From Chryseobacterium gleum (lineage in GTDB: Bacteria; Bacteroidota; Bacteroidia; Flavobacteriales_D; Crocinitomicaceae), in the NCBI GenBank assembly GCA_945888625.1, contig CAMDAH010000017.1:1-50432 (forward strand): a stretch of DNA of 50,432 nt, given 5' to 3'. Under the pieces are notes generated by a model. That model was not told the origin of the DNA. It made no database searches and saw only the letters and a program-made list of their open reading frames with translations. The position numbers were made by a program, and so were the translations under genes. Positions 307-12,562 of the stretch are shown here, piece by piece; position 1 is the first letter of the stretch; each line of letters starts with the position of its first letter.

Positions 307-333
307 ACAAGACAACAATTAATAATAAAACAG

Positions 334-469
334 CAGCTAACATCGGTTTGGCAAAAGTGGCGGTTCAGTGCTCCGCAGACACATTTCTGGTTAATCAAAC
401 ATTTGTTCTCCGCATTAACATTTGTGGTGAAAATCGCCACCTTCGCCAAGCCCGAAACCGTTACCAGCA
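334..469 (+). repeat. attC-like element 1 (cassette boundary)
   Basis: The element opens with GCTAAC and closes with CGTTACCAGC. The left arm (about 344-366, GGTTTGGCAAAAGTGGCGG) pairs imperfectly with the right arm (about 435-456, CGCCACCTTCGCCAAGCCCG), leaving a central bulge at AAAA/CTTC. The arms are nearly identical to those of element 2 at 7890-8042. Imperfect arm pairing and TAAC/GTTA ends are what integron attC sites show; assignment as a working recombination site is inference. Confidence 0.6.
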
Positions 470-725
470 AGCCTAAAAAGACGACAGTGCATAAAATGAA
501 CGACATAGCAAGACATCAAAACGTAACGGGACAATTGATCCGACTGACAGCCGACCGCACTGCCAACGCTCCTGTATTTTTATTTTTTTCCACCGCACAT
601 TTTTTAAAAACAATTTTAGCCAGCCGCACAAATGGCACATTTGCTTTTGCCCGACACACAAGCCGACCCTTCGCAAAACCAAAAGAGCCATTTTTTGCCT
701 AGCCTAATAATTCCTGCAATTTATA
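470..725. repeat. Non-coding spacer with inverted copy of a repeat (copy A)
   Basis: This stretch, together with the preceding attC-like element, forms the gene-free region 307-725. The segments at 573-589 (TGTATTTTTATTTTTTT) and 599-618 (ATTTTTTAAAAACAATTTTA) reappear as reverse complement at 7786-7802 and 7752-7770, on the other side of the three-gene module. ORFs crossing it on both strands are composed of unlikely residue runs and look spurious. I see no tRNA or protein gene here. Confidence 0.55.
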
Positions 726-2168
726 ATGATGACCGAAACTAAAACATATTTTGACTTTGAACTGAAACCACAACAACAGAAAGCTTTTTCTGCATTGTGG
801 AACTTCATTGAAAGCAAGTCAGACAAAGTTTTTATTCTGAAAGGTTACGCAGGCACAGGCAAGACAACTTTAATGAGTGGCTTAATCAAACGGCTTTCGG
901 AAGATAAAATTCCTTTTGCACTTTTGGCTTCAACAGGCAGAGCTGCAAAAATTTTATCCGACAAAACAAAGACCACAGCGAACACAATTCACAGCCACAT
1001 TTATGTTTTTAAAGAGTTAAGTGAGGACTTGGAAAAGATGAGTGAACTGCAACAAAACTTAGCAATTGACGACAAAGGACAAATTACTTTGCTTTTTGAC
1101 CTGACTCCAATCAGCAGCGACACAGAAAAAATTTACATCATTGACGAGGCATCAATGGTTTCGGATGAGGTTGATAAGAACACATCTTTCGCAAAATTTG
1201 GAAGTGGTGATTTGCTTGGCGACATTTTAAGTTACGATACGAAAGGTAAATTTATTTTTGTTGGCGACCCTTGTCAGTTGCCTCCAATCAATCAGGCAAA
1301 CTCCCCTGCTCTTTCTGCCTCACATATTTCAACAAAGTATAAATTACAGACATCGGAATTTGAAATGACCGACATCATTCGGCAAGCAAACACAAACGGA
1401 ATTATTAAAGCATCATTCAAACTCCGTAATTTATTTCACACAAACCCGAATGTTAAGTTTGCAAACCTACCAGTAAAAGGACACAGCAATATTTTTATTG
1501 AGAACTCACATGCAGGAATGTTAAACAAGTACATTGAAAAAATTAAAACCGAAGGTTTTAATCATTCCACTCTTATCTGTCAAACGAACAAACATTGTTC
1601 GGACTTAAATAATGTTATTCGTTCCTCATTGCAGAATAATAGTGAAAGAATTTGCGAAGGAGATTTACTAATGGTTACTCAAAATAATTATCTTTCAAAT
1701 CTTGTAAATGGCGACCAGATAATTGTTTTGAAAATCGGAAGCAGTGAATACAGATGTGGCTTATCATTCCTGCAAGTAGAGGTTGAAGAAATTTCTTCAA
1801 AGAGCAAATTCAATTTGCTTTTGATTGAAGATATTCTTTACTCTACATGGACAAACCTCAACACGAAACAACACAAGGAATTGATGATTGATTATTTCAA
1901 ACGCATGAAAGACAAAGGCATTAAGCAAAAAGATTCCGCCTTTAAAGATAACATGCTTAAAGACCCATATCTTAATGCACTGAAAACTGTTTATGGTTAT
2001 GCGTTGACTTGTCACAAAGCACAAGGCGGAGAATGGAACGAAGTGTTTTTGTATTTGGACAATAAAATTCACGGCATCAAGAAGCCAGGAATTTATCAAT
2101 GGCTTTACACAGCAGTTACAAGAGCAAAAGAAAATTTACATTTAGTTAATGACTGGTTTATAAAATAA
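726..2168 (+). CDS. RecD/Pif1-like SF1 DNA helicase
   Basis: This 480-residue protein has the layout of superfamily 1B helicases. Walker A is GYAGTGKTT at about residues 40-48, and Walker B is IIDEAS near 137-142. GDPCQLPP near 180 is the motif III region of RecD/Pif1/TraA-type enzymes. The C-terminal UvrD_C_2-like half carries TCHKAQGGEW near 429 and YTAVTRAKENL near 461. Family knowledge predicts ATP-driven 5'-3' DNA unwinding. It is shorter than a full RecD (about 600 residues) and has no visible nuclease. Two ATGs (726 and 729) compete for the start. The next gene begins 9 bp after the stop, so it is probably the first gene of a three-gene operon and supplies the nucleic-acid-processing part of that module. 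The function in the module is inferred. Confidence 0.85.
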   Translation: MMTETKTYFDFELKPQQQKAFSALWNFIESKSDKVFILKGYAGTGKTTLMSGLIKRLSEDKIPFALLASTGRAAKILSDKTKTTANTIHSHIYVFKELSEDLEKMSELQQNLAIDDKGQITLLFDLTPISSDTEKIYIIDEASMVSDEVDKNTSFAKFGSGDLLGDILSYDTKGKFIFVGDPCQLPPINQANSPALSASHISTKYKLQTSEFEMTDIIRQANTNGIIKASFKLRNLFHTNPNVKFANLPVKGHSNIFIENSHAGMLNKYIEKIKTEGFNHSTLICQTNKHCSDLNNVIRSSLQNNSERICEGDLLMVTQNNYLSNLVNGDQIIVLKIGSSEYRCGLSFLQVEVEEISSKSKFNLLLIEDILYSTWTNLNTKQHKELMIDYFKRMKDKGIKQKDSAFKDNMLKDPYLNALKTVYGYALTCHKAQGGEWNEVFLYLDNKIHGIKKPGIYQWLYTAVTRAKENLHLVNDWFIK

Positions 2169-2177
2169 CTTTGAGCA

Positions 2178-5100
2178 ATGATTGACATATTTAAAAAGGA
2201 AATAAAAGTTTCGGACAAAGTAAAACTCTATCTTAATTCAGGGAAAGAAGTAGAAGTTGATATTATTGAAATTGGCGACAAACATATTTTAGTAAAAAAT
2301 GCCGATGGCAGTCAATCAAGATTTTTTGAACAACTCATTGGCGGTTGGGACTTAATAACCAGTTCTAAGCCAGTAGAGGAAATAGTTGAACCAAAAATTG
2401 AAGCAGAAGCAAAACCTGTTGAAGTTGTTGAACCGGAAAAAGCAGAAAGTGAAAATAAAATTGGTTTAAAGATTTTAGGTAAGATTGACTTAGATAAAAT
2501 TGAGCCTAAAAGGAAAAAATACTATGAAAATAAATCCATTGTTCCGCAGTCAGAACAAACTACTACAAAACCTAAAACACTTAGTCAACATATCCGTGAG
2601 CAGAACTTAGTTTTCACTTCACTCCAAAACTTACAAGAACTCAAAGACAAAATCACCTCTGATTTTGCCAAACAAACAATCCCTGCAAATGCAATAATCA
2701 AAAGGTTTGGACAAAATTCTTACGGTTCAAAATTTGGTTTTCTTACAGACAACGAAAAAAGAGATTATTATTTTTCACTCACTGATGTTTGCGATGAAAA
2801 ATTAAAGGACATCTTAAACAACCCTAATCCACAAGGAACCCATGTAGTTTGCACATTAAAATCTATTCAAGGTAGATTAAAAGCAACTTCAATTTATATA
2901 CCGAAAACTGTAGAAGAATTTCAATCCATCGCTGAAACATTTTATGAAAAAAATGATTTTGCAGAAGCAATATCGATTATAAATTTCATTGTCAATTCCT
3001 TCGATGAATTTGAACCTGCACTAAAACTTAAAAATCAAATTTTAGCAGAGCAGAATAAAAAGAAAGTTACAGCTACATCAGCATCCCCAATTTATCAGCA
3101 AGCACGCACTGAACTGAAAAGAGGAAATATAGAATATGCAAAAAAATTACTGCTTGAACTTATTGATAGTCCAAATTCAAAATCAGAAGCCGCTTTAAAA
3201 GAATTAGCTTATGAATTACAGCGAGAAGGAAAACTTGAAGATGCTATTCAATTAGTTTTTAAGTATCAAACACTAATTAAAACCTCTGACCCTAATAGTC
3301 TATTGGCGTATTTCTATGAAACTAAAAAAGACTATACAAATGCAATTTCATACTTAAATAAAATAAGACCTCAAACACCTGTTGAAAGAATAAGAGTCGA
3401 GAAGAGATTTGCTATTTGCTATTTCCAAACAAAAGATTACGCTTCTTCGGAATTATATCTTAAAAAGGTATTAGAAAAACTTCCCAATGATTTTATTATT
3501 CAAAAACAACTTGAACTATTAGAGAAAATAAAATCCGAAGGTTTATCAGAAGAAATAGAATCAATATTTAATGAAGCTGAATTATATTCCTTATCAGGTG
3601 GATTAAGTCCATTCATGCAATTTGAGCTAAACAGATGCGATTATTATGGTGTTCAATCTTCAGAAGTCACAAAAGAATCCTTTTCAAGAAAAACTCTTAA
3701 TGAATTGAAGAAACTCATTGATGCTTTAAAAGAAGGCCGTCCGAAAGAAAGAGCTGAGCTTTATTTATCAGAGGCAAAAGTTCAGAGAACAATTAATTCG
3801 GAAGAGGAAAAAGCTATTAAATCTTCTTTAGCCAAATTTTGCACTTCTATTTCATTAAGCTGGTCTGCTGATAACCGTAACAACGATACTTTTCGTTTTT
3901 TCATACTCGAAGCAAGTTCCTTAAGCCCTGATTTTTCCATAATAACCCGGCATATTCCGATGTATCTCCACTCATTCTTTATTCCAAGCTTTGAAACAAG
4001 AGCAAAAGACACTCAATCCCTTAAATCACTTGTTGAAGAGATGTTTTCAAAAGAATTAAATGAAAAATTCTGGTTAGGGATTATTGATTTAATTCTTGTC
4101 AACACTGAGTTTACTTCCAAATTTCTATCCTATATATTTCCAGACAAGGTAAAAAAAGAGAAAGCAATAAAATTTCTTTCGAGCTTTTTAGAACAGGAGT
4201 TTAGTAATACTAATTCATCAAAGGACTACTTTATAGAAATATGGAATGAAGCAAGCAACAAAAGGAAAAGGCAAAAGGACATACTCAATGCCAAATATTT
4301 AGCTCTTAATAAAAGTAATACAACAGAAACTTTTATTGAAGCATTTGATTCATTAAGTTCAAATATTCCTGAATGGTGCTGCAATTTGGATAGAGCAAGA
4401 ATTAACTCCTTGTCTGAAATAACAAGGACAATTACCGGATTTAATAATCAGAATGCCTTTGAAGATAAAGAGAGGTATTTCAATATATCAATCAATCAAA
4501 TAAATTCATTGGAGTCGGAAATTATTGAAAGTCCTACTGAATTTTCATTTAACACAATGCGGCAACAATTGACAACACTTATAAAATTAATTGAACAGGA
4601 ATTTAGGACGGTTATTCAAACTAGCAAACCTGTAATCGACATTAAGGTTTTAGGTGAATCTATTATTCATGACAACAACTTGGTTGTTGCATCCATCAAT
4701 ATTTCAAATAAAAAAGGAAGTGCTCCTATATCATGGTTTCTTCTTGAAATAAATAATTCAGACGGTATTGAATTTATTCAAGAGAATCATGAAAGCAATC
4801 AGAGTTTAAAAGGTGGTGATGACAAAACATTGAAATTGAAAGTTCAAGTATCAAGCAGTATTAGGGAACAAGGAGCTTTTAACTTGAATGTAAAATTCAG
4901 CTACAAAGTGCGAGGAAGCGAAGATGTTTTGACATTCCCCGAAAACTTAGCTGTACGTTTATACTCTGAGAATGAATTTGACGAAATCACCAATCCATTT
5001 TCAGCAACAGCTGACAGTGGACCTGTTCAAGATGAAAAAATGTTTTATGGAAGAAATGAATTTATTGACAACATAAAAAACTCAATACTTGAATCTTCTT

Positions 5101-6152
5101 CAAAGTGTGTAATCATTTACGGACAAAAGCGTTCAGGTAAATCTTCTGTTTTGTTTCATCTAAAAAAACAACTTATTCAATCTGCAAATGCTTTCTGCAT
5201 TTCTTTTAGCTTGGGTGAAATTGTTGAAGATTTATCAGCACAAACATTTTACTACAAAATATTATCTGAAATTGAAGATTCATTGGAATCAATTTCAAAT
5301 GATGGAAATCCCAAACCGAAGTTCACAGCACCAACGCTATCAGAACTCAAAGAAGCACCATCACTTATTTTTAATGACTACATGAAAAAATTTCGGAAAG
5401 AATGTTCCGCAACAATTGGTTGGGAAAATAAAAACCTTATTTTACTTATTGATGAGTTTACTTACATCTACACTGCTATTCAAAAGGATTTCCTTTCAGA
5501 CCAGTTTATGAAAACATGGAAAAGTTTTGTCGAGAAAAGTTTCTTCACTTCAATACTAATTGGACAAGACATCATGCCTAAATTCAAAATGGCTTATCAA
5601 AATGAATTTGGAATTGCGGAGGATAAACGACTTTCCTATTTATCAAAAGAGGATGCAATTAAATTGATTGAAGAACCAATTTGGGATGAAAAACGGAAGC
5701 GTAGCAGATACTTAGGTAAAGCAATGGATTTAATTCTTGACTACACATCTTCAAATCCTTATTACATACAAATCTTTTGTGCAAGACTTGTTGAATACAT
5801 GAATAGTCAGAAAGCAATTAGCGTAACGGAAGCTGATGTTTATGATGTTGCTCAAACTTTCATACGAGGTGAACAATCTTTAAGTCCTGATAAATTTGAC
5901 AACTTGATAACAGCAGGTGACGCTGACATTGAAGCATTCAACCCACAGGACATTTTGAAAGCATTAAAGGAAATAGCTTTTGCTTCTAAGAATCTTGATA
6001 GTTGCTCCAGAGAATCAATAAAACTAGGAGATAAAGAAAAGGAAGAACAAATCCTTTCGGACTTAAAAACAAGGGAAGTTATTTCTTGTCCCCAACCCGG
6101 TTTTTATAAAATCAAAGTCCGTCTTTTTAAAGAGTGGCTATTAAACAACTAA
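2178..6152 (+). CDS. Large multidomain protein: SH3/Lsm-like + cold-shock-like + TPR + C-terminal STAND-like NTPase
   Basis: This is a 1324-residue protein. Residues 1-60 are a small beta-rich unit, followed by a Glu/Pro/Val-rich linker (about 65-95). Residues 168-240 resemble a cold-shock/OB fold (KFGFLTDNEKRDYYFSLTDV, then GRLKATSIYI). From about 245 to 480 come TPR-like helical pairs, then a long helical region. A beta-sandwich-like stretch spans about 815-930, and a P-loop NTPase starts at FYGRNEF (955), with Walker A GQKRSGKSS near 981 and Walker B LILLIDEF near 1090. I see no nuclease, TIR or protease motif. TPR plus a C-terminal NTPase suggests a sensor or scaffold, with the OB-like unit possibly contacting RNA or ssDNA; this is inference. 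The stop lies 5 bp before the preferred start of the next NTPase gene. Confidence 0.75.
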   Translation: MIDIFKKEIKVSDKVKLYLNSGKEVEVDIIEIGDKHILVKNADGSQSRFFEQLIGGWDLITSSKPVEEIVEPKIEAEAKPVEVVEPEKAESENKIGLKILGKIDLDKIEPKRKKYYENKSIVPQSEQTTTKPKTLSQHIREQNLVFTSLQNLQELKDKITSDFAKQTIPANAIIKRFGQNSYGSKFGFLTDNEKRDYYFSLTDVCDEKLKDILNNPNPQGTHVVCTLKSIQGRLKATSIYIPKTVEEFQSIAETFYEKNDFAEAISIINFIVNSFDEFEPALKLKNQILAEQNKKKVTATSASPIYQQARTELKRGNIEYAKKLLLELIDSPNSKSEAALKELAYELQREGKLEDAIQLVFKYQTLIKTSDPNSLLAYFYETKKDYTNAISYLNKIRPQTPVERIRVEKRFAICYFQTKDYASSELYLKKVLEKLPNDFIIQKQLELLEKIKSEGLSEEIESIFNEAELYSLSGGLSPFMQFELNRCDYYGVQSSEVTKESFSRKTLNELKKLIDALKEGRPKERAELYLSEAKVQRTINSEEEKAIKSSLAKFCTSISLSWSADNRNNDTFRFFILEASSLSPDFSIITRHIPMYLHSFFIPSFETRAKDTQSLKSLVEEMFSKELNEKFWLGIIDLILVNTEFTSKFLSYIFPDKVKKEKAIKFLSSFLEQEFSNTNSSKDYFIEIWNEASNKRKRQKDILNAKYLALNKSNTTETFIEAFDSLSSNIPEWCCNLDRARINSLSEITRTITGFNNQNAFEDKERYFNISINQINSLESEIIESPTEFSFNTMRQQLTTLIKLIEQEFRTVIQTSKPVIDIKVLGESIIHDNNLVVASINISNKKGSAPISWFLLEINNSDGIEFIQENHESNQSLKGGDDKTLKLKVQVSSSIREQGAFNLNVKFSYKVRGSEDVLTFPENLAVRLYSENEFDEITNPFSATADSGPVQDEKMFYGRNEFIDNIKNSILESSSKCVIIYGQKRSGKSSVLFHLKKQLIQSANAFCISFSLGEIVEDLSAQTFYYKILSEIEDSLESISNDGNPKPKFTAPTLSELKEAPSLIFNDYMKKFRKECSATIGWENKNLILLIDEFTYIYTAIQKDFLSDQFMKTWKSFVEKSFFTSILIGQDIMPKFKMAYQNEFGIAEDKRLSYLSKEDAIKLIEEPIWDEKRKRSRYLGKAMDLILDYTSSNPYYIQIFCARLVEYMNSQKAISVTEADVYDVAQTFIRGEQSLSPDKFDNLITAGDADIEAFNPQDILKALKEIAFASKNLDSCSRESIKLGDKEKEEQILSDLKTREVISCPQPGFYKIKVRLFKEWLLNN

Positions 6153-6157
6153 TTCAA

Positions 6158-7672
6158 ATGATATTAAAAAATCCATTCTCCGACTTTGGCGGAATCATTA
6201 AAGGTGACAGGTTTGTTGGCAGAAAATTCGAATTGAACCAAATTCAAAAAAGACTTTTGGGAGAAAGCTTTGGCAACCTTGCAATAATTGGCTTGCCAAG
6301 AATTGGTAAATCAAGTTTAGCATGGAATTCAATTATTGAAAATAAGGAAACACTTATTCAAAAAAAGATTCTACCGATTTGGATTCCCTTGGGAGAGTTT
6401 TCAAATCTTATTGAATTCCTTGATGAAGTTCTTTCAATAGTGTGTGACCAAATCCAAACGACAAACAATGATTTTTTCTCTGTATTTAATGAGTTGAGGA
6501 ATAGTTTTCATTCCGCAGATTCAAATCTTGAGAAAAGGCGATTTGTAAAAAAGTTTCTAAGAAATATAAATACCAACGGCTTTCGTTTAATTCTTGTAAT
6601 TGATGAGTTTGATAATGCACAAGATATTTTTTCACTTCAAGACTTTCAGTTTTTAAGAGAAAGTTCATACAATTTAGAAACTAAAATCGGAATCGTTACC
6701 GTTTCTCGAAAGACAATTCAAGAGTTAGAACCCGATAATGGTTCTTTATCAAATTTTTATCAAATATTTGACGAGTTAAGGTTGAAACTTTTTTCTGATG
6801 TTGATGTGGCTCTTTATTGGCAGCGGTTAAAGAATCTAGGAATAAGTGTTAGCGACACATATATTGAGAATATAATTTTCTATTCAGGAAAGCATCCCTA
6901 CTTACTTGACTTAATCAATTATAGCATCTTTAATAAAATTGAACAGACGGATATAAATCTTGATGAGATTTTGAATTCAACTTTAGAGACTTTAAAACTT
7001 AAAATTTACAATGAATATGAATCCATTTTGAAGTTAATGGAACAAGAAAGTCTTGACAAAAAACTTGTTCAAATGATTGTTGGGCCAAACTATGACATAA
7101 CTCAAAGAGATGTTGAGAAACTTCTAAAATACAGTTTGGTAAAATCTACGGCTGACGAATCTTTTGAATGCTTCGCAAAATTCTTTGAAGAATATCTTTC
7201 ACTCAAATCTTCTGAAATTGACATTTGGCCTCTTTGGTCAAATATAGAGAGTGAGTTGCGAAACATAATAAAATTTAGATTAACAGAAAAATATGGAGCA
7301 AATTGGGAAATTGGATTTGAAAAAGAGTTTGGTATTAAGAGAAAAAAACTAATGGAAGATTTAAGTTTTGTTAGAGATAAAAACAAAAAATCTTTTGGAG
7401 ATAAAGCGTCCGAACATCTTATTGATTATACATACCCTATGGATATGTTCAATGGGTTTATTACCTCAGATTGGAAATGGTATTCAAATATTTTTGGATT
7501 AAAAACTCAAACAAATGATTGGAATAAAAAATTTGAACATCTGAGTAAAATAAGAAATCCATTAGCTCATAATAACAAAAGCTTCTTAACTGAATCTGAT
7601 AAAAATATTGCATCTGGATTCTGTCAGGAAATATTAGCACTTATAAATAAATGGAAGGAAAGCCAAACCTAA
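6158..7672 (+). CDS. STAND-like NTPase with C-terminal HEPN-like domain
   Basis: From the ATG at 6158 the protein has 504 residues. An in-frame GTG at 6134 would overlap the upstream gene by 19 bp, but conserved-looking sequence (NPFSDFGGIIKGDRFVGR) starts right after the ATG. The NTPase has a VGRKFE entry, Walker A GLPRIGKSS near 44-52 and Walker B LILVIDEFD near 143-151. The same architecture ends the upstream protein, so the two ATPases are probably related. The last 130 residues are helical, starting with IESELRNIIKFRL and containing KIRNPLAHN. R466 and H471 make an R-x4-H motif, the signature of HEPN ribonuclease domains, and the region recalls Swt1-type HEPN. If active, this would be the toxic effector of the module. 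Function is inferred from motif and context. Confidence 0.75.
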   Translation: MILKNPFSDFGGIIKGDRFVGRKFELNQIQKRLLGESFGNLAIIGLPRIGKSSLAWNSIIENKETLIQKKILPIWIPLGEFSNLIEFLDEVLSIVCDQIQTTNNDFFSVFNELRNSFHSADSNLEKRRFVKKFLRNINTNGFRLILVIDEFDNAQDIFSLQDFQFLRESSYNLETKIGIVTVSRKTIQELEPDNGSLSNFYQIFDELRLKLFSDVDVALYWQRLKNLGISVSDTYIENIIFYSGKHPYLLDLINYSIFNKIEQTDINLDEILNSTLETLKLKIYNEYESILKLMEQESLDKKLVQMIVGPNYDITQRDVEKLLKYSLVKSTADESFECFAKFFEEYLSLKSSEIDIWPLWSNIESELRNIIKFRLTEKYGANWEIGFEKEFGIKRKKLMEDLSFVRDKNKKSFGDKASEHLIDYTYPMDMFNGFITSDWKWYSNIFGLKTQTNDWNKKFEHLSKIRNPLAHNNKSFLTESDKNIASGFCQEILALINKWKESQT

Positions 7673-7673
7673 A

Positions 7674-7736
7674 AGCAAGCACATTTGCAATTCGCGCAGG
7701 ACATCGTACAGACCAAAAATTGCAAAAGAGCTTGCT
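7674..7736 (+). repeat. Inverted repeat after the three-gene module
   Basis: AGCAAGCACATTTGCAAT (7674-7691) and ATTGCAAAAGAGCTTGCT (7719-7736) are imperfect reverse complements over 18 nt, separated by 27 nt, and start one base after the stop codon of the HEPN gene. No long T-run follows, so an ordinary intrinsic terminator is not clearly supported. It may be a stem-loop at the transcript end or part of the boundary repeat. Confidence 0.45.
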
Positions 7737-7889
7737 TTGCCAGCGCAGACAAAAATTGTTTTTAAAAAATTCCCCAACGCTTCAAAAAAAAATAAAAATA
7801 CACCATCACGCAGCCCGACAAACACAGCCAACAATGACAATAAAACTCAATACTGCCAAGGCTTACAACGACAAGGTGGACAAAAGGCC
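7737..7889. repeat. Boundary repeat (copy B) in gene-free spacer
   Basis: The segments 7752-7770 (AAAATTGTTTTTAAAAAAT) and 7786-7802 (AAAAAAATAAAAATACA) match, in inverted orientation, 599-618 and 573-589 on the left side of the module. Sequence between and around the blocks has diverged. This spacer plus element 2 makes up the gene-free stretch 7673-8055; an ORF covering it runs straight through the attC-like element and is not credible. Confidence 0.5.
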
Positions 7890-7936
7890 AGCAGGTAACA
7901 CGGGTTTGGCAAAAGTGGCGGTTCAGTGCTCCGCAG

Positions 7937-7952
7937 ATCCGCCGCGGCGGAT
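7937..7952. repeat. 16-bp GC-rich palindrome, copy 1
   Basis: ATCCGCCGCGGCGGAT is a perfect palindrome and is far richer in GC than its surroundings. At the equivalent place element 1 has unrelated AT-rich bases, so the palindrome looks like an inserted or replaced module in the loop part of the attC-like element. Confidence 0.8.
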
Positions 7953-7981
7953 GGTTAATCAAAGTTTGGTTCTCCACATCA

Positions 7982-7997
7982 ATCCGCCGCGGCGGAT
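7982..7997. repeat. 16-bp GC-rich palindrome, copy 2
   Basis: This is an identical copy of the palindrome at 7937-7952, 45 bp further on. The two copies sit at nearly mirror-image places of the attC-like stem, so each can fold by itself or pair with the other and lengthen the stem. Confidence 0.8.
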
Positions 7998-8055
7998 GGT
8001 GAAAATCGCCACCTTCGCCAAGCCCGAAAACGTTATAGGCAAGTAAAAATTAACT

Positions 8056-8556: not shown

Positions 8557-8653
8557 GAATTAATCATAATATAAAGGTGGAGGCCAGAAACCACCAAATA
8601 AAACGGGGCGAAACCGAAAAGCCACACGAGTAGGAACTTAAAAAAAAGTAAAT
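8557..8653 (+). other. Spacer with small hairpin before the next gene
   Basis: GGTGG (8576-8580) and CCACC (8591-8595) can form a short stem around a purine-rich loop, followed by a GGGGCGAAACC-type stretch. The segment is less AT-rich than its neighbours and serves as the leader of the gene at 8654. No known RNA family is recognised. Confidence 0.3.
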
Positions 8654-9259: not shown

Positions 9260-9290
9260 ATCTGCGTAAATAAATGGTTGACAATTACCA

Positions 9291-9382
9291 GCCTATAACA
9301 GCGTGCAAGCGACATAACCCTGCCGTCCCGAAGGTTCGGGACAACTCAAGGCAACATCGCCTACACGCAAACCGTTAGCGGT
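9291..9382 (+). repeat. attC-like element 3 (cassette boundary)
   Basis: The element opens with CTATAACAGCGTGCAAGCGAC and closes with ATCGCCTACACGCAAACCGTTAG. The arms are reverse complements with bulges (GTG..AGCGA against TCGCCTACAC). The centre holds a perfect hairpin, GTCCCGAA-GG-TTCGGGAC, at 9325-9342. It is shorter than elements 1 and 2 but has the same TAAC...GTTA polarity. Confidence 0.55.
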
Positions 9383-9445
9383 CATTGTAAATAGACCAAA
9401 GTATAATTGAACAAACAGAATAATAATATTAAAACAGACAGACAA

Positions 9446-10138
9446 ATGAAAAAAACAGGATTGACTTTTATTATGCTTTTAACATTGGGTTTCATTGGTA
9501 AAGCACAGACAACTAGATATTTTGAATTTTCGACAACCTGTGGACATGGAAACTGGCAGGACACCACATTTATAGCTTCTACCTCTAATCAGATAATAAT
9601 AGACTCAGTTCTTGCTAACTTGGCTAGACCATTAAACCAGAGAAACTTTATTGGCGGACCAATTGATTATGGCAATGGAGGACACAATCACAATGCAAAT
9701 CATTGGTTTTTATGGCATTTTATTCCTAATCAATGGAACCTTGCAGAAGTGGCAATAGAACTTTGTGATGGTTGTCCTTATACAGATGTTGACGCAGATA
9801 CAGCTTATTGGATCGGAAATGTTGGTCAATTTTGCCCTTGGTCTGGTCGTCCGGTAAGAGAAGTATCAAACCCTTTAGGAATTAACGACCCGATTTTTGA
9901 AAATGAAATTTTACTTTATCCAAACCCAGCCAAGGACGAATTAAATTTGAAATGGAATAATTTAAATAACATTTCAGTCACAATATTTAATTCAATAGGA
10001 CAAGAATTATCAACTTTTTTTCTTTCAAAAGATAAGAACATTATTGACATATCAGAACTACAGAAAGGACTTTACTTTCTGAAAATTATTGACGGAAATA
10101 AAACAGGAATAAAAAAATTAATTATTGATGGAAAATAA
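9446..10138 (+). CDS. Secreted BP74-like domain protein with T9SS sorting domain
   Basis: From the ATG at 9446 there are 230 residues. A TTG 39 bp upstream is in frame, but the signal peptide (MKKTGLTFIMLLTLGFIGKA, cleavage near KA-QT) begins at the ATG. The mature N-terminal part carries the pattern of the BP74-N family: an opening YFEFSTTCG, a repeated-looking HWFLWHFIPNQWNLAEVAIE, and CPWSGRPVREV near residue 133. BP74 proteins are Dictyostelium calmodulin-binding or extracellular proteins with bacterial relatives of unknown role. The last 75 residues (LLYPNPAKDELNL to the end) are a T9SS type A sorting domain. The predicted product is exported and anchored or released. It lies between attC-like elements 3 and 4, so it appears to be a single-gene cassette. 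The family assignment is from memory of the pattern. Confidence 0.7.
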   Translation: MKKTGLTFIMLLTLGFIGKAQTTRYFEFSTTCGHGNWQDTTFIASTSNQIIIDSVLANLARPLNQRNFIGGPIDYGNGGHNHNANHWFLWHFIPNQWNLAEVAIELCDGCPYTDVDADTAYWIGNVGQFCPWSGRPVREVSNPLGINDPIFENEILLYPNPAKDELNLKWNNLNNISVTIFNSIGQELSTFFLSKDKNIIDISELQKGLYFLKIIDGNKTGIKKLIIDGK

Positions 10139-10143
10139 ACAAC

Positions 10144-10282
10144 GAACCGCTAACAGCACCTACAAGAAATTGGCGGTTCAGTGGTTAAATGAAGCTTTGT
10201 GCTTCGTATCAAGTTTTGTGGTGGCAGACAGTTTTCGTCTCCGAAATCGCCAACTTCTTTTAGCTGCAAAACGTTATAAGCA
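10144..10282 (+). repeat. attC-like element 4 (cassette boundary)
   Basis: The element starts 6 bp after the stop of the BP74-like gene with GAACCGCTAACAGC and closes with ACGTTATAAGC. AAGAAATTGGCGGTT on the left pairs with AATCGCCAACTTCTT on the right. An inner hairpin GAAGC-TTTGT-GCTTC is present at about 10191-10205. Confidence 0.6.
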
Positions 10283-10879: not shown

Positions 10880-11019
10880 AGCTTATAACAGCTGTCATGG
10901 CGCCAGCCCATCTTGCTTCGAAAGAACGATTATTTTGAAAGAAAATAATTTTAACTTCGGTGTAACGATTTATTTAAAGAGTCGGGCCGATCGCCTACAC
11001 GCAAAACGTTATTAACAGA
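10880..11019 (+). repeat. attC-like element 5 (last of the array)
   Basis: The element opens with GCTTATAACAGCTGTCATGGCGCC and closes with GATCGCCTACACGCAAAACGTTATTAAC. The right arm's CGCCTACACGCAAA matches element 3's right arm (CGCCTACACGCAAACCG). Its middle is long and AT-rich (about 10925-10975). No further element is seen to the right. Confidence 0.55.
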
Positions 11020-11221
11020 TATTAGGATCCATGTAAGGGCATGCGTTCTTTTAGGAAATGGAAGGGATAAAATAATATTCCATACTCAATATACTTCCGC
11101 CTTTATTTTATAAAATATCGATATTTGGTGAATTCCTTAAATAAAAAAAATTATTGAGTCCGAAAGAGCAAAAAAAATATAAAATATTTTAATTTTGTTG
11201 AGAATCAATAAGATAAATAAA
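11020..11221 (+). promoter_or_regulatory. Leader of the YHYH gene, with candidate -7 box
   Basis: With the attC-like element this forms the gene-free stretch 10872-11221. TAATTTTG at 11190-11197 fits the Bacteroidota -7 box (TAnnTTTG), about 25 bp before the ATG at 11222. No TTTG lies at the expected -33 place, so the call is weak. Confidence 0.35.
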
Positions 11222-12562
11222 ATGAATTACGGAAAATTTTTACTTGTACCACTAGTGTGTACATTTTTGCAATCCAACATTTTGACTGCACAAACTACTA
11301 TTCAAAAAGTTAATCCATTACTTTTTTTAGATGGTGCAAGCGTAACAGTCTCTACTGTAAGCTGCACTTTGTCTAACGGAACCAGTACAAATTGTTATAA
11401 AATTGTTTCAACAAGTACCCCATCAGATCACACTATGGGGCCTTGGTGTCCAACAAATATTTCCGATGATGCAACCCAAGGTGGGATTTGGTTACAAAAC
11501 GGAAATGTGTATGATGTAGATGGTGCATTTATTCAAAATTTAGCTACTTTTTACAATAATAATACTTGGCAAATGTATAATACCACAACAGGTGAAATTA
11601 TCAGAACATTAACTCAAGCAGAGTGCGCAGCTGCAGCTAACCCAAATGTAGGAGTGCAATATCAAAATTATTGTGTAGAGTGTTTACCAGCTTATGTAGC
11701 CGGTATCACACAAACCTATCTATTCCCTGTAACGCCAGTTAAATTAACATCTTCCACCTCATTTGGGATGGGGCCAGGAGCAGTTGGGCCAACTGTGCGA
11801 GGGGTTGCATTCAATGGGGTGCGATTTGATGCTCCTGCTCCCGTAAATGCAATTTTAAATGCCTATACATTAGCTCCATTTGATGATGCAGGAGGACATA
11901 TAAACCTTGCGGCAGGATATCACTACCACGCTGCAACTGGTTTATCTTCAAATATAGCGCAGTGCGACGAACATGCACCAATGATAGGATATGCTTTAGA
12001 CGGACATGGTATATATGCTCATGCCAATGAAGATAACACAGTACCCAATGATTTAGATGCTTGCTTTGGACATTATGATGCAACAAGAGGTTATCATTAT
12101 CACGTTGACGCAGCAGGTAATAACAATTTTATTAATTGTATACATGGTGCATATGTAACTCAAGGTGGAAGTAATATTACCATTGATGTTGATGGCGATG
12201 GGTTTTCATTGTTGGAAGATTGCGACGACAACAATGCTGCCGTCAATCCAATTGCAGCCGAAATTGATGGAAATGCTATTGATGAAAATTGCGATGGTAT
12301 ATTCTGTACAATACTTTCTACTCTAGAGAATGAGTTAGGAAAAGTTGTAATCCTTTATCCAAACCCTATGAATAATGTTTTGAATTTTAGCGCGGACTTG
12401 CCTATCTTAAAAGTTGAAATCTATGATATGGCTGGTAGATTAATTAATGTAAAAACAGCACCAGACAACACTATTTATACAAATGATTTAAAATCGGGGA
12501 ATTATTTAGTAAAAATTTATTCACAAAATGGAATTACAAATACTAAAATAATCAAAGAATAA
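11222..12562 (+). CDS. Secreted YHYH-domain protein with MopE-type metal-binding motif and T9SS sorting domain
   Basis: The preferred ATG at 11222 gives 446 residues beginning with a signal peptide (MNYGKFLLVPLVCTFLQS... cut near TAQT). A TTG 27 bp upstream is in frame but precedes the signal peptide. Near residue 234 YHYH occurs in GYHYHAATG, then GYALDGHGIY and GYHYHVDAAG around 293, the features of the YHYH domain. Residues 322-360 hold a calcium- or metal-ligand-type Asp-rich motif (DVDGDG... EDCDDNN... DENCDG), as in MopE-like proteins. The tail from LYPNPMNNVLNF is a type A T9SS sorting domain. It is likely exported and metal-binding; the His-rich and Asp-rich motifs suggest copper or calcium, but this is inference. 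It marks the first gene beyond the cassette array. Confidence 0.8.
   Translation: MNYGKFLLVPLVCTFLQSNILTAQTTIQKVNPLLFLDGASVTVSTVSCTLSNGTSTNCYKIVSTSTPSDHTMGPWCPTNISDDATQGGIWLQNGNVYDVDGAFIQNLATFYNNNTWQMYNTTTGEIIRTLTQAECAAAANPNVGVQYQNYCVECLPAYVAGITQTYLFPVTPVKLTSSTSFGMGPGAVGPTVRGVAFNGVRFDAPAPVNAILNAYTLAPFDDAGGHINLAAGYHYHAATGLSSNIAQCDEHAPMIGYALDGHGIYAHANEDNTVPNDLDACFGHYDATRGYHYHVDAAGNNNFINCIHGAYVTQGGSNITIDVDGDGFSLLEDCDDNNAAVNPIAAEIDGNAIDENCDGIFCTILSTLENELGKVVILYPNPMNNVLNFSADLPILKVEIYDMAGRLINVKTAPDNTIYTNDLKSGNYLVKIYSQNGITNTKIIKE

What the first reader, a model, noticed from the sequence alone, without database searches (positions are those of the whole stretch)
726..7672. Candidate new three-gene conflict system: helicase, TPR-NTPase, NTPase-HEPN
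Three co-directional genes, spaced 5-9 bp apart, combine a RecD/Pif1-like helicase, a 1324-residue protein (cold-shock-like, TPR, beta-sandwich, P-loop NTPase) and a P-loop NTPase with a C-terminal HEPN-like part (R466-x4-H471). The sensor-scaffold plus toxic-RNase layout is what NTP-dependent (STAND-type) immune modules look like, and the module sits in accessory DNA bounded by repeats. I do not recognise this exact set as a named system.
Basis: partly seen in the sequence, partly recalled or inferred. Interest (0 to 1): 0.9.

Follow-up and report, generated by a model that had tools for sequence, protein, structure and literature searches.

The report
Portable two-protein RNA-cutting alarm switch
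Two adjacent bacterial genes that stay together in almost every relative examined encode predicted NTP-driven switch proteins, one ending in a likely RNA-cutting domain, so the pair probably works as an infection alarm; here it sits beside a helicase gene between repeats that look like integron recombination sites, which would make it a portable variant of an already predicted kind of immune system.

Summary
The three genes are real, but they are not a fixed trio. In 57 of 58 loci fetched with the second protein, the TPR-NTPase gene (g2) is paired with the NTPase-HEPN gene (g3), once as a single ORF. The helicase (g1) lies directly upstream in 2 of those 57; 20 of 21 sampled genomes with g1-like helicases gave no g2 or g3. 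A g1 89% identical to this one precedes a g2 only 34% identical: g1 is an optional, exchangeable partner.

g3's C-terminus behaves as HEPN: R466-x4-H471 is present in all 54 rows that align there, and the model aligns best with HEPN domains. One relative has a protein kinase there. In one relative all three genes directly follow CBASS and type I restriction genes.

The flanking repeats are attC-like hairpins, five in one orientation; the module fills one 7.57-kb cassette-like unit. No integron integrase passed its cut-off in this genome.

Paired STAND NTPases with HEPN effectors, and Swt1-like HEPN with STAND, TPR and S1, are already predicted in print. This is a new variant: both NTPases intact, with a cold-shock-TPR partner. 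Antiphage function is inferred, not shown.

The parts
333..470 (+). attC-like site closing the preceding unit (core GTT at 460-462)
   Evidence: Repeat families D1-D3; bottom strand folds to a hairpin, z -2.8; one of the five sites that model R1 was built from
461..8032 (+). cassette-like unit of 7,572 bp between two attC-like cores, holding g1-g2-g3
   Evidence: Cores read from the sequence, boundaries; no further + strand R1 match inside at E up to 1
726..2168 (+). g1: RecD/Pif1-like SF1 helicase, 480 aa; optional partner
   Evidence: AAA_30, UvrD_C_2; PADLOC candidate PDC-M16A E 1.8e-129; directly upstream of g2 in L002 and L005 only
2178..6152 (+). g2: 1324 aa; cold-shock-like domain near residues 171-212, TPRs near 300-445, STAND-type NTPase from about 951
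   Evidence: Pfam over 32 relatives, PDB profile hits to TPRs and a cold-shock protein, K988 and D1092-E1093 in 58 of 58 rows
6134..7672 (+). g3: NTPase-HEPN, 512 aa from GTG 6134 or 504 aa from ATG 6158
7190..7672 (+). HEPN domain of g3, with R466-x4-H471
   Evidence: R and H invariant in 43 sequences; model pLDDT 93.9; best re-aligned solved chains are HEPN domains
7891..8042 (+). attC-like site closing the module's unit (core GTT at 8032-8034)
   Evidence: Hairpin z -6.3; used to build R1
9290..9382 (+). attC-like site
   Evidence: Hairpin z -4.4; used to build R1
10146..10281 (+). attC-like site
   Evidence: Hairpin z -2.65; used to build R1
10883..11017 (+). attC-like site, weakest fold
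   Evidence: Hairpin z -1.4, 20 of 200 shuffles fold as well; used to build R1

Best explanation
The core is a two-gene pair, kept together in 57 of 58 loci, that likely works as an NTP-driven infection switch: g2 is predicted to sense aberrant nucleic acid or a phage product and to assemble with g3, whose likely HEPN RNase would then cut cellular or phage RNA and stop the infection. Shown here: linkage of g2 and g3, conserved Walker motifs in both, an R-x4-H present in every row that aligns there on a HEPN-like model, cold-shock and TPR matches in the g2 family, and in one relative the replacement of HEPN by a protein kinase, as expected of an exchangeable effector. Inferred: ligand, assembly, RNase activity and antiphage effect. 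The RecD-like helicase g1 is an optional partner that is exchanged independently of the pair; it would process or expose the nucleic acid being sensed. In this genome the set occupies one cassette-like unit of an attC-like array, so it probably moves, or once moved, by integron-type recombination.
For: g2+g3 linkage in 57 of 58 loci, one of them fused in a single ORF; 28 shared contig lengths between the g2 and g3 homologue lists of 120 each, against 0.5 on average and 3 at most for shifted lists. Walker motifs: g2 K988, D1092, E1093 in 58 of 58 rows; g3 K51 in 57 of 58; R466 and H471 in 54 of 58, the other four not aligning there. Fold: NTPase part closest to 2qen, archaeal ORC2, 2fna, CED-4 and plant NLRs. 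HEPN part: rows 1-5 of the re-alignment are AbiA, the yeast Swt1 C-terminal domain, a HEPN toxin and two MntA-HepT entries, and rows 8-9 a HEPN protein and another toxin-antitoxin entry (that the MntA-HepT toxins are HEPN is recalled). Effector swap: protein kinase E 6.5e-39 at the C-terminus of L045 g3. Defence context: in L005 a type I restriction subunit, a CBASS cyclase (E 1.8e-103) and a 2TM effector directly precede g1-g2-g3. g1 exchange: 88.5% identity in L005 against 33.9% for g2 and 39.5% for g3, with an 84% DNA match ending 52 bp into g2. attC-like sites; L002, which carries all three genes, has an attC-like hairpin after g3 (z -2.5) with weak R1 support (E 0.77).
Confidence: 0.55

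Rival explanations
1. Fixed three-gene system: the helicase is an obligate part of the machine.
For: g1 is directly upstream with 5-9 bp spacing in the window, L002 and L005; 14 of 120 listed g1 homologues share a contig length with a listed g2 or g3, against 1.0 on average and 4 at most by chance.
Against: g1 directly upstream in 2 of 57 loci (five have under 1.5 kb upstream of g2); 20 of 21 sampled genomes with g1-like proteins gave no g2 or g3; 41 of 55 listed g1 contigs of 8 kb or more show no listed g2 or g3 (lists cut at 120).
Confidence: 0.12
2. Toxin-antitoxin or general stress module: g3 is a HEPN toxin held by g2, and it responds to RNA stress or nutrient shifts rather than to phage.
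For: HEPN toxins are common in such modules (recalled; PMC3710099 passages, discuss such roles); the cold-shock and TPR parts of g2 fit RNA stress sensing; few defence neighbours overall.
Against: g2 is a large protein with Walker motifs kept in 58 of 58 rows, unlike typical small antitoxins; kinase in the effector place; CBASS and restriction neighbours in L005.
Confidence: 0.2
3. The C-terminal domain is a HEPN fold used for RNA binding or dimerisation only, not as an RNase.
For: The aligned Swt1 C-terminal domain (4pqz) belongs to a family that PMC3710099 describes as possibly inactive.
Against: R and H invariant in 43 of 43 fragments and present in 54 of 54 aligned rows.
Confidence: 0.08
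4. The flanking repeats are ordinary interspersed palindromic repeats, not recombination sites, and the unit is not a cassette.
For: No integrase over its cut-off; the weakest site does not fold better than shuffles; a 7.6-kb unit is very large for a cassette (recalled).
Against: Five sites in one orientation with genes between; matches on C9, C14 and C26 that were not used to build the model, three of them clustered on one strand of C9; four of five fold with z below -2.6.
Confidence: 0.2

Closest known systems
nSTAND2 two-gene counter-invader operon (PMC8195603; section 15 with the legend of Fig. 6C read)
   Same: Two-gene operon, STAND NTPase in both proteins, C-terminal exchangeable effector that can be HEPN; g3 matches nSTAND2 in 20 of 33 relatives
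   Different: There the effector-bearing NTPase has eroded motifs; here g3's are kept. g2 matches nSTAND1 in 32 of 32 and nSTAND2 is not among the 25 families shown, and it carries cold-shock and TPR parts. Effectors seen here are HEPN and a kinase, not GT4.
Swt1-like HEPN with STAND-ATPase, TPR and S1 (PMC3710099, Table 1: Npun_F6454, MED222_16016, Desac_1927; passages seen)
   Same: Same ingredients: Swt1-like HEPN, STAND-type NTPase, TPRs, and a cold-shock domain, which like S1 is an OB-fold (recalled)
   Different: Listed there as fusions; here two proteins with two NTPases in all loci but L037. Those three proteins could not be compared directly here.
PADLOC candidates PDC-M16A and PDC-M34B
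   Same: g1 matches PDC-M16A (E 1.8e-129); g3's HEPN part matches PDC-M34B in 30 of 33 relatives
   Different: No PADLOC model matches g2; the partner genes that define M16 and M34 were not available
CoCoNuT systems (PMC11090510, passages seen)
   Same: Cold-shock domains, NTPases, HEPN nucleases, a TPR protein and helicases in systems predicted to target RNA
   Different: No McrB GTPase, McrC or coiled-coil tandem among the Pfam matches of g1-g3
Plant NLR resistosomes and CED-4
   Different: Fold-level likeness only; two-protein layout with a C-terminal RNase-like domain

Membership tests
[quoted passage not shown]
   R122-x4-H127 of the fragment lies at the end of helix 108-126 before helix 135-159; placement as described in PMC3710099
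HEPN domain RNases | HEPN fold | tested here: met
HEPN domain RNases | RNA cleavage | not testable with these tools
   Needs an assay
nSTAND2 two-gene operon (PMC8195603) | two adjacent genes, each with a STAND-type NTPase | tested here: met
nSTAND2 two-gene operon (PMC8195603) | both NTPases of the nSTAND2 family | tested here: inconclusive
   g3: 20 of 33 members; g2: nSTAND1 in 32 of 32, nSTAND2 not among the 25 of 37 families shown
nSTAND2 two-gene operon (PMC8195603) | effector-bearing NTPase has lost its NTP-binding motifs | tested here: not met
   g3 K51 in 57 of 58, D149 in 56 of 58 rows
nSTAND2 two-gene operon (PMC8195603) | variable C-terminal effector | tested here: met
   HEPN motif in 54 of 58 rows; kinase in L045; L019 shows no recognised domain there
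nSTAND2 two-gene operon (PMC8195603) | conserved arginine finger in both proteins | not tested
   Not assigned on the models
Swt1-like HEPN with STAND-ATPase, TPR, S1 (PMC3710099) | Swt1-like HEPN | tested here: met
   PF18731 in 23 of 33 members at E 0.01 or better, best 2.2e-6; the window protein alone only E 0.013, under cut-off
Swt1-like HEPN with STAND-ATPase, TPR, S1 (PMC3710099) | all domains in one polypeptide | tested here: not met
   Two genes in the window and in 56 of 57 loci; fused in L037 only
Integron gene cassette | attC site pairing as a hairpin on the bottom strand, with GTT core | tested here: met
   Four of five sites z below -2.6, one -1.4; alignment of cores
Integron gene cassette | integron integrase in the genome | tested here: not met
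   No gene reaches the TIGR02249 cut-off of 265 bits; the best one has 195.5 bits as a whole protein
Integron gene cassette | excision and integration | not testable with these tools
   Needs an assay
PADLOC candidate PDC-M16 | PDC-M16A plus its defined partner | tested here: inconclusive
   PDC-M16A matched by g1; no other PDC-M16 component among the five window proteins scanned; the definition of the partner was not seen

The most novel reading that the evidence does not exclude
A two-protein, NLR-like RNA-surveillance machine in which two intact STAND NTPases, one with a cold-shock-TPR sensor and one with an exchangeable HEPN RNase or kinase effector, form one hetero-oligomer; it picks up a swappable helicase as a substrate-feeding partner and travels in Bacteroidota as a 7.6-kb three-gene integron cassette without a classical integron integrase.
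Probability: 0.3. Interest if true: 0.75.

Novelty: new variant of a known kind. Interest (0 to 1): 0.55.

Why it matters
If it works as inferred, this is a widespread immune switch (loci from about nine phyla, assigned by me from the record titles) whose sensor gene no PADLOC model matches, with an RNA-binding sensor architecture and an effector slot that accepts at least two kinds of domain. It would link NLR-like NTPase switches to RNA sensing in bacteria. It would also show that integron-type arrays in Bacteroidota, for which PMC9024848 names a single complete integron in its data set (passages), can carry multi-gene immune modules.

Tried and rejected
Three-gene obligate module: rejected as the general form. 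Whole-chain fold search of g3: list filled by its NTPase part, so the C-terminal part was modelled alone. Foldseek with that model: no significant match; HEPN rows came to the top only on re-alignment. Phages, viral contigs and plasmids: a DNA search of plasmids gave only short matches; protein-level searches found no relatives of g3 and g2 in viral contigs, of g1 in viral contigs, of g2 and g3 in plasmids or of g2 in phages. Recombinase on contig C9 as an integron integrase: not accepted, since it is under the cut-off, lacks profile positions 180-237 and scores higher with NF040815, an XerA-type model whose description also names integron integrases, itself just under its cut-off (213.7 of 220 bits); VchIntI4 (2a3v) is its second-best PDB match. 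Literature: the searches in the held open-access library listed no paper that I recognised as describing this exact set; 'PDC-M16' gives no paper. Papers were seen as passages (PMC11090510, PMC13092281, PMC3710099, PMC9024848, PMC7159879), as passages plus one section (PMC8195603), or only in listings. g2's beta-sandwich and its N-terminal 65 residues (aligned) were not assigned. A wider look for effector swaps in the groups of L019 and L029 did not run.
Full report
Observation. The three ORFs exist as described: 726-2168 (g1, 480 aa), 2178-6152 (g2, 1324 aa) and 6134/6158-7672 (g3, 512 or 504 aa), all on the + strand. g1 is an SF1 helicase of RecD/Pif1 type and strongly matches the PADLOC candidate family PDC-M16A (E 1.8e-129). 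g2 has no PADLOC match. g3 matches AAA_16 and, weakly, HEPN_Swt1 (E 0.013). Taken alone, neither g2 nor g3 reaches a Pfam cut-off.

Families. Searches gave 206 relatives of g2 and 520 of g3. Scanned one by one at E 0.01, 32 of 32 aligned g2 relatives match AAA_22 and nSTAND1, 21 of 32 match TPR_19 and 8 of 32 the cold-shock domain; the g2 profile hits TPR structures at about 300-445 and a cold-shock protein (2k5n) at 171-212. Of 33 aligned g3 relatives, 23 match HEPN_Swt1, 20 match nSTAND2 and 30 match PADLOC PDC-M34B, in the window protein over the HEPN part.

Linkage. A scan of one genome per species with the g2 alignment returned 58 loci. In 57 of them g3 was found with g2; mostly the genes overlap by 1-50 bp or are a few bp apart. 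In L043, L044 and L052 an ORF of 184-191 aa lies between them (in L043 it matches g3 weakly itself), in L037 both are one 1998-aa ORF, and L035 has a short g3. The 58th, L058, is a weak hit with neither. From the record titles I assign the loci to Bacteroidota, Bacillota, Campylobacterota, Pseudomonadota, Cyanobacteriota, Chloroflexota, Desulfobacterota, Planctomycetota and Babelota. As an independent check, the best-120 lists of g2 and g3 relatives share 28 contig lengths, against 0.5 on average (at most 3) when one list is shifted.

The helicase. g1 lies directly upstream of g2 in L002 and L005 only, 2 of 57 (five loci have under 1.5 kb upstream); L009 has a related helicase nearby, behind a gene on the other strand. 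In 395 sampled genomes of the phylum, g2 and g3 were each found once, in the own genome (only a few first-look candidates per genome were scored), while g1-like proteins at E 1e-60 or better occur in 21, the own genome included, some of them longer, RecD2-sized proteins. Among the best 120 g1 relatives, 14 share a contig length with a listed g2 or g3, against 1.0 (at most 4) by chance. So g1 is a real but optional associate. In L005, g1 is 88.5% identical to the window's, g2 only 33.9% and g3 39.5%; the 84% DNA match runs from 89 bp before g1 to 52 bp inside g2. g1 and its upstream region have thus been exchanged between distant g2-g3 pairs, with the operon junction kept.

Catalytic motifs. 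Over the window and 57 loci, g2 keeps K988, D1092 and E1093 in 58 of 58 rows; g3 keeps K51 in 57 and D149 in 56 of 58; R466 and H471 are both present in 54 of 58 and the other four rows do not align there. Of these four, L027 ends with its contig, L035 is short, L019 has no recognised domain there, and L045 carries a protein kinase (PF00069, E 6.5e-39) in the effector place.

Context. In L005 the order is type I restriction subunit (E 9.7e-28), CBASS cyclase (E 1.8e-103), 2TM effector (E 8.1e-49), then g1-g2-g3. Elsewhere the picture is mixed: 91 near neighbours were given to the scan (of 171 listed). Among the first 25 of 90 matching PADLOC families, those with more than one member are WYL (7), RecD-type models (4), the g1 family PDC-M16A, PDC-S68 and PDC-S53 (3 each) and mad8 (2), and the first 25 of 118 Pfam families are mostly unrelated to defence. 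No relatives of the pair were found in viral contigs or plasmids, and none of g2 in phages.

The repeats. The repeats that bound the module are part of a set of five attC-like sites at 333-470, 7891-8042, 9290-9382, 10146-10281 and 10883-11017, all in one orientation, each ending in a GTT core. Their bottom strands fold into long hairpins, with z -2.8, -6.3, -4.4, -2.65 and -1.4. A model built from these five finds further sites on contigs C9 (three, on one strand, 208-1634), C14 and C26, which were not used to build it, and a weak one on C37. The module therefore fills a 7,572-bp unit (461-8032), followed by units of 1,342, 899 and 735 bp (cores read by eye). No gene passes the integron-integrase cut-off; a tyrosine recombinase 3.2 kb from the C9 sites scores higher with an XerA-type model and is under that cut-off too. 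By the terms of PMC9024848 (passages) this is a cluster of attC sites lacking an integrase. L002, from another MAG with all three genes, has an attC-like hairpin after g3 (z -2.5; R1 E 0.77) and, read by eye, an attC-like end before g1. L001, L003-L008, L013 and L015 gave no match.

Mechanism. From established knowledge of STAND NTPases, the likely course is: g2 recognises a trigger through its N-terminal cold-shock and TPR parts, NTP binding drives assembly with g3, and HEPN domains brought together become an active RNase. The evidence shows the parts and their linkage; trigger, assembly, cleavage and antiphage effect are inferred. g1, where present, would unwind or expose nucleic acid for sensing; this is a guess from its family.

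Known kinds. PMC8195603 (section 15 read) predicts a mobile two-gene operon of two nSTAND2 proteins, one of them with eroded NTP-binding motifs and a GT4 or HEPN effector. The present pair shares the plan but fails the eroded-NTPase feature, so it is not filed as a member. PMC3710099 (Table 1 passages) lists Swt1-like HEPN with STAND-ATPase, TPR and S1, mostly active; the pair here looks like the split, two-NTPase counterpart of that. The verdict is a new variant of a known predicted kind.

Noticed in passing
window 8572-8640 (+): Rfam DUF805 RNA (RF03081, 80.2 bits, gathering 51.1) between the two ORFs of the next cassette-like unit.
   Followed up: no
G000 contig C9, L072:208-1634 and 4861-5988 (-): Three attC-like sites near a contig end and, 3.2 kb away, a 375-aa tyrosine recombinase close to XerA-type and integron-integrase models but under both cut-offs. 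C9 and C17 may be two ends of one array.
   Followed up: partly
L045:2758-4689 (+): g3-like NTPase with a Ser/Thr protein kinase domain in place of HEPN, in a Babeliaceae MAG.
   Followed up: partly
L005:3946-8452 (+): Restriction subunit, CBASS cyclase and 2TM effector directly before g1-g2-g3.
   Followed up: yes
L043, L044, L052: An ORF of 184-191 aa between g2 and g3 in these three loci of Bacteroidota.
   Followed up: no
window 7937-7958 and 7982-8003: Two copies of a short GC-rich palindrome inside the loop of the attC-like site after g3, absent from the otherwise similar site at 333-470.
   Followed up: no
window 9407-10138 and 11195-12562: Proteins ending in what look like type IX secretion sorting tails (by eye, recalled motif), the first inside the cassette array.
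   Followed up: no
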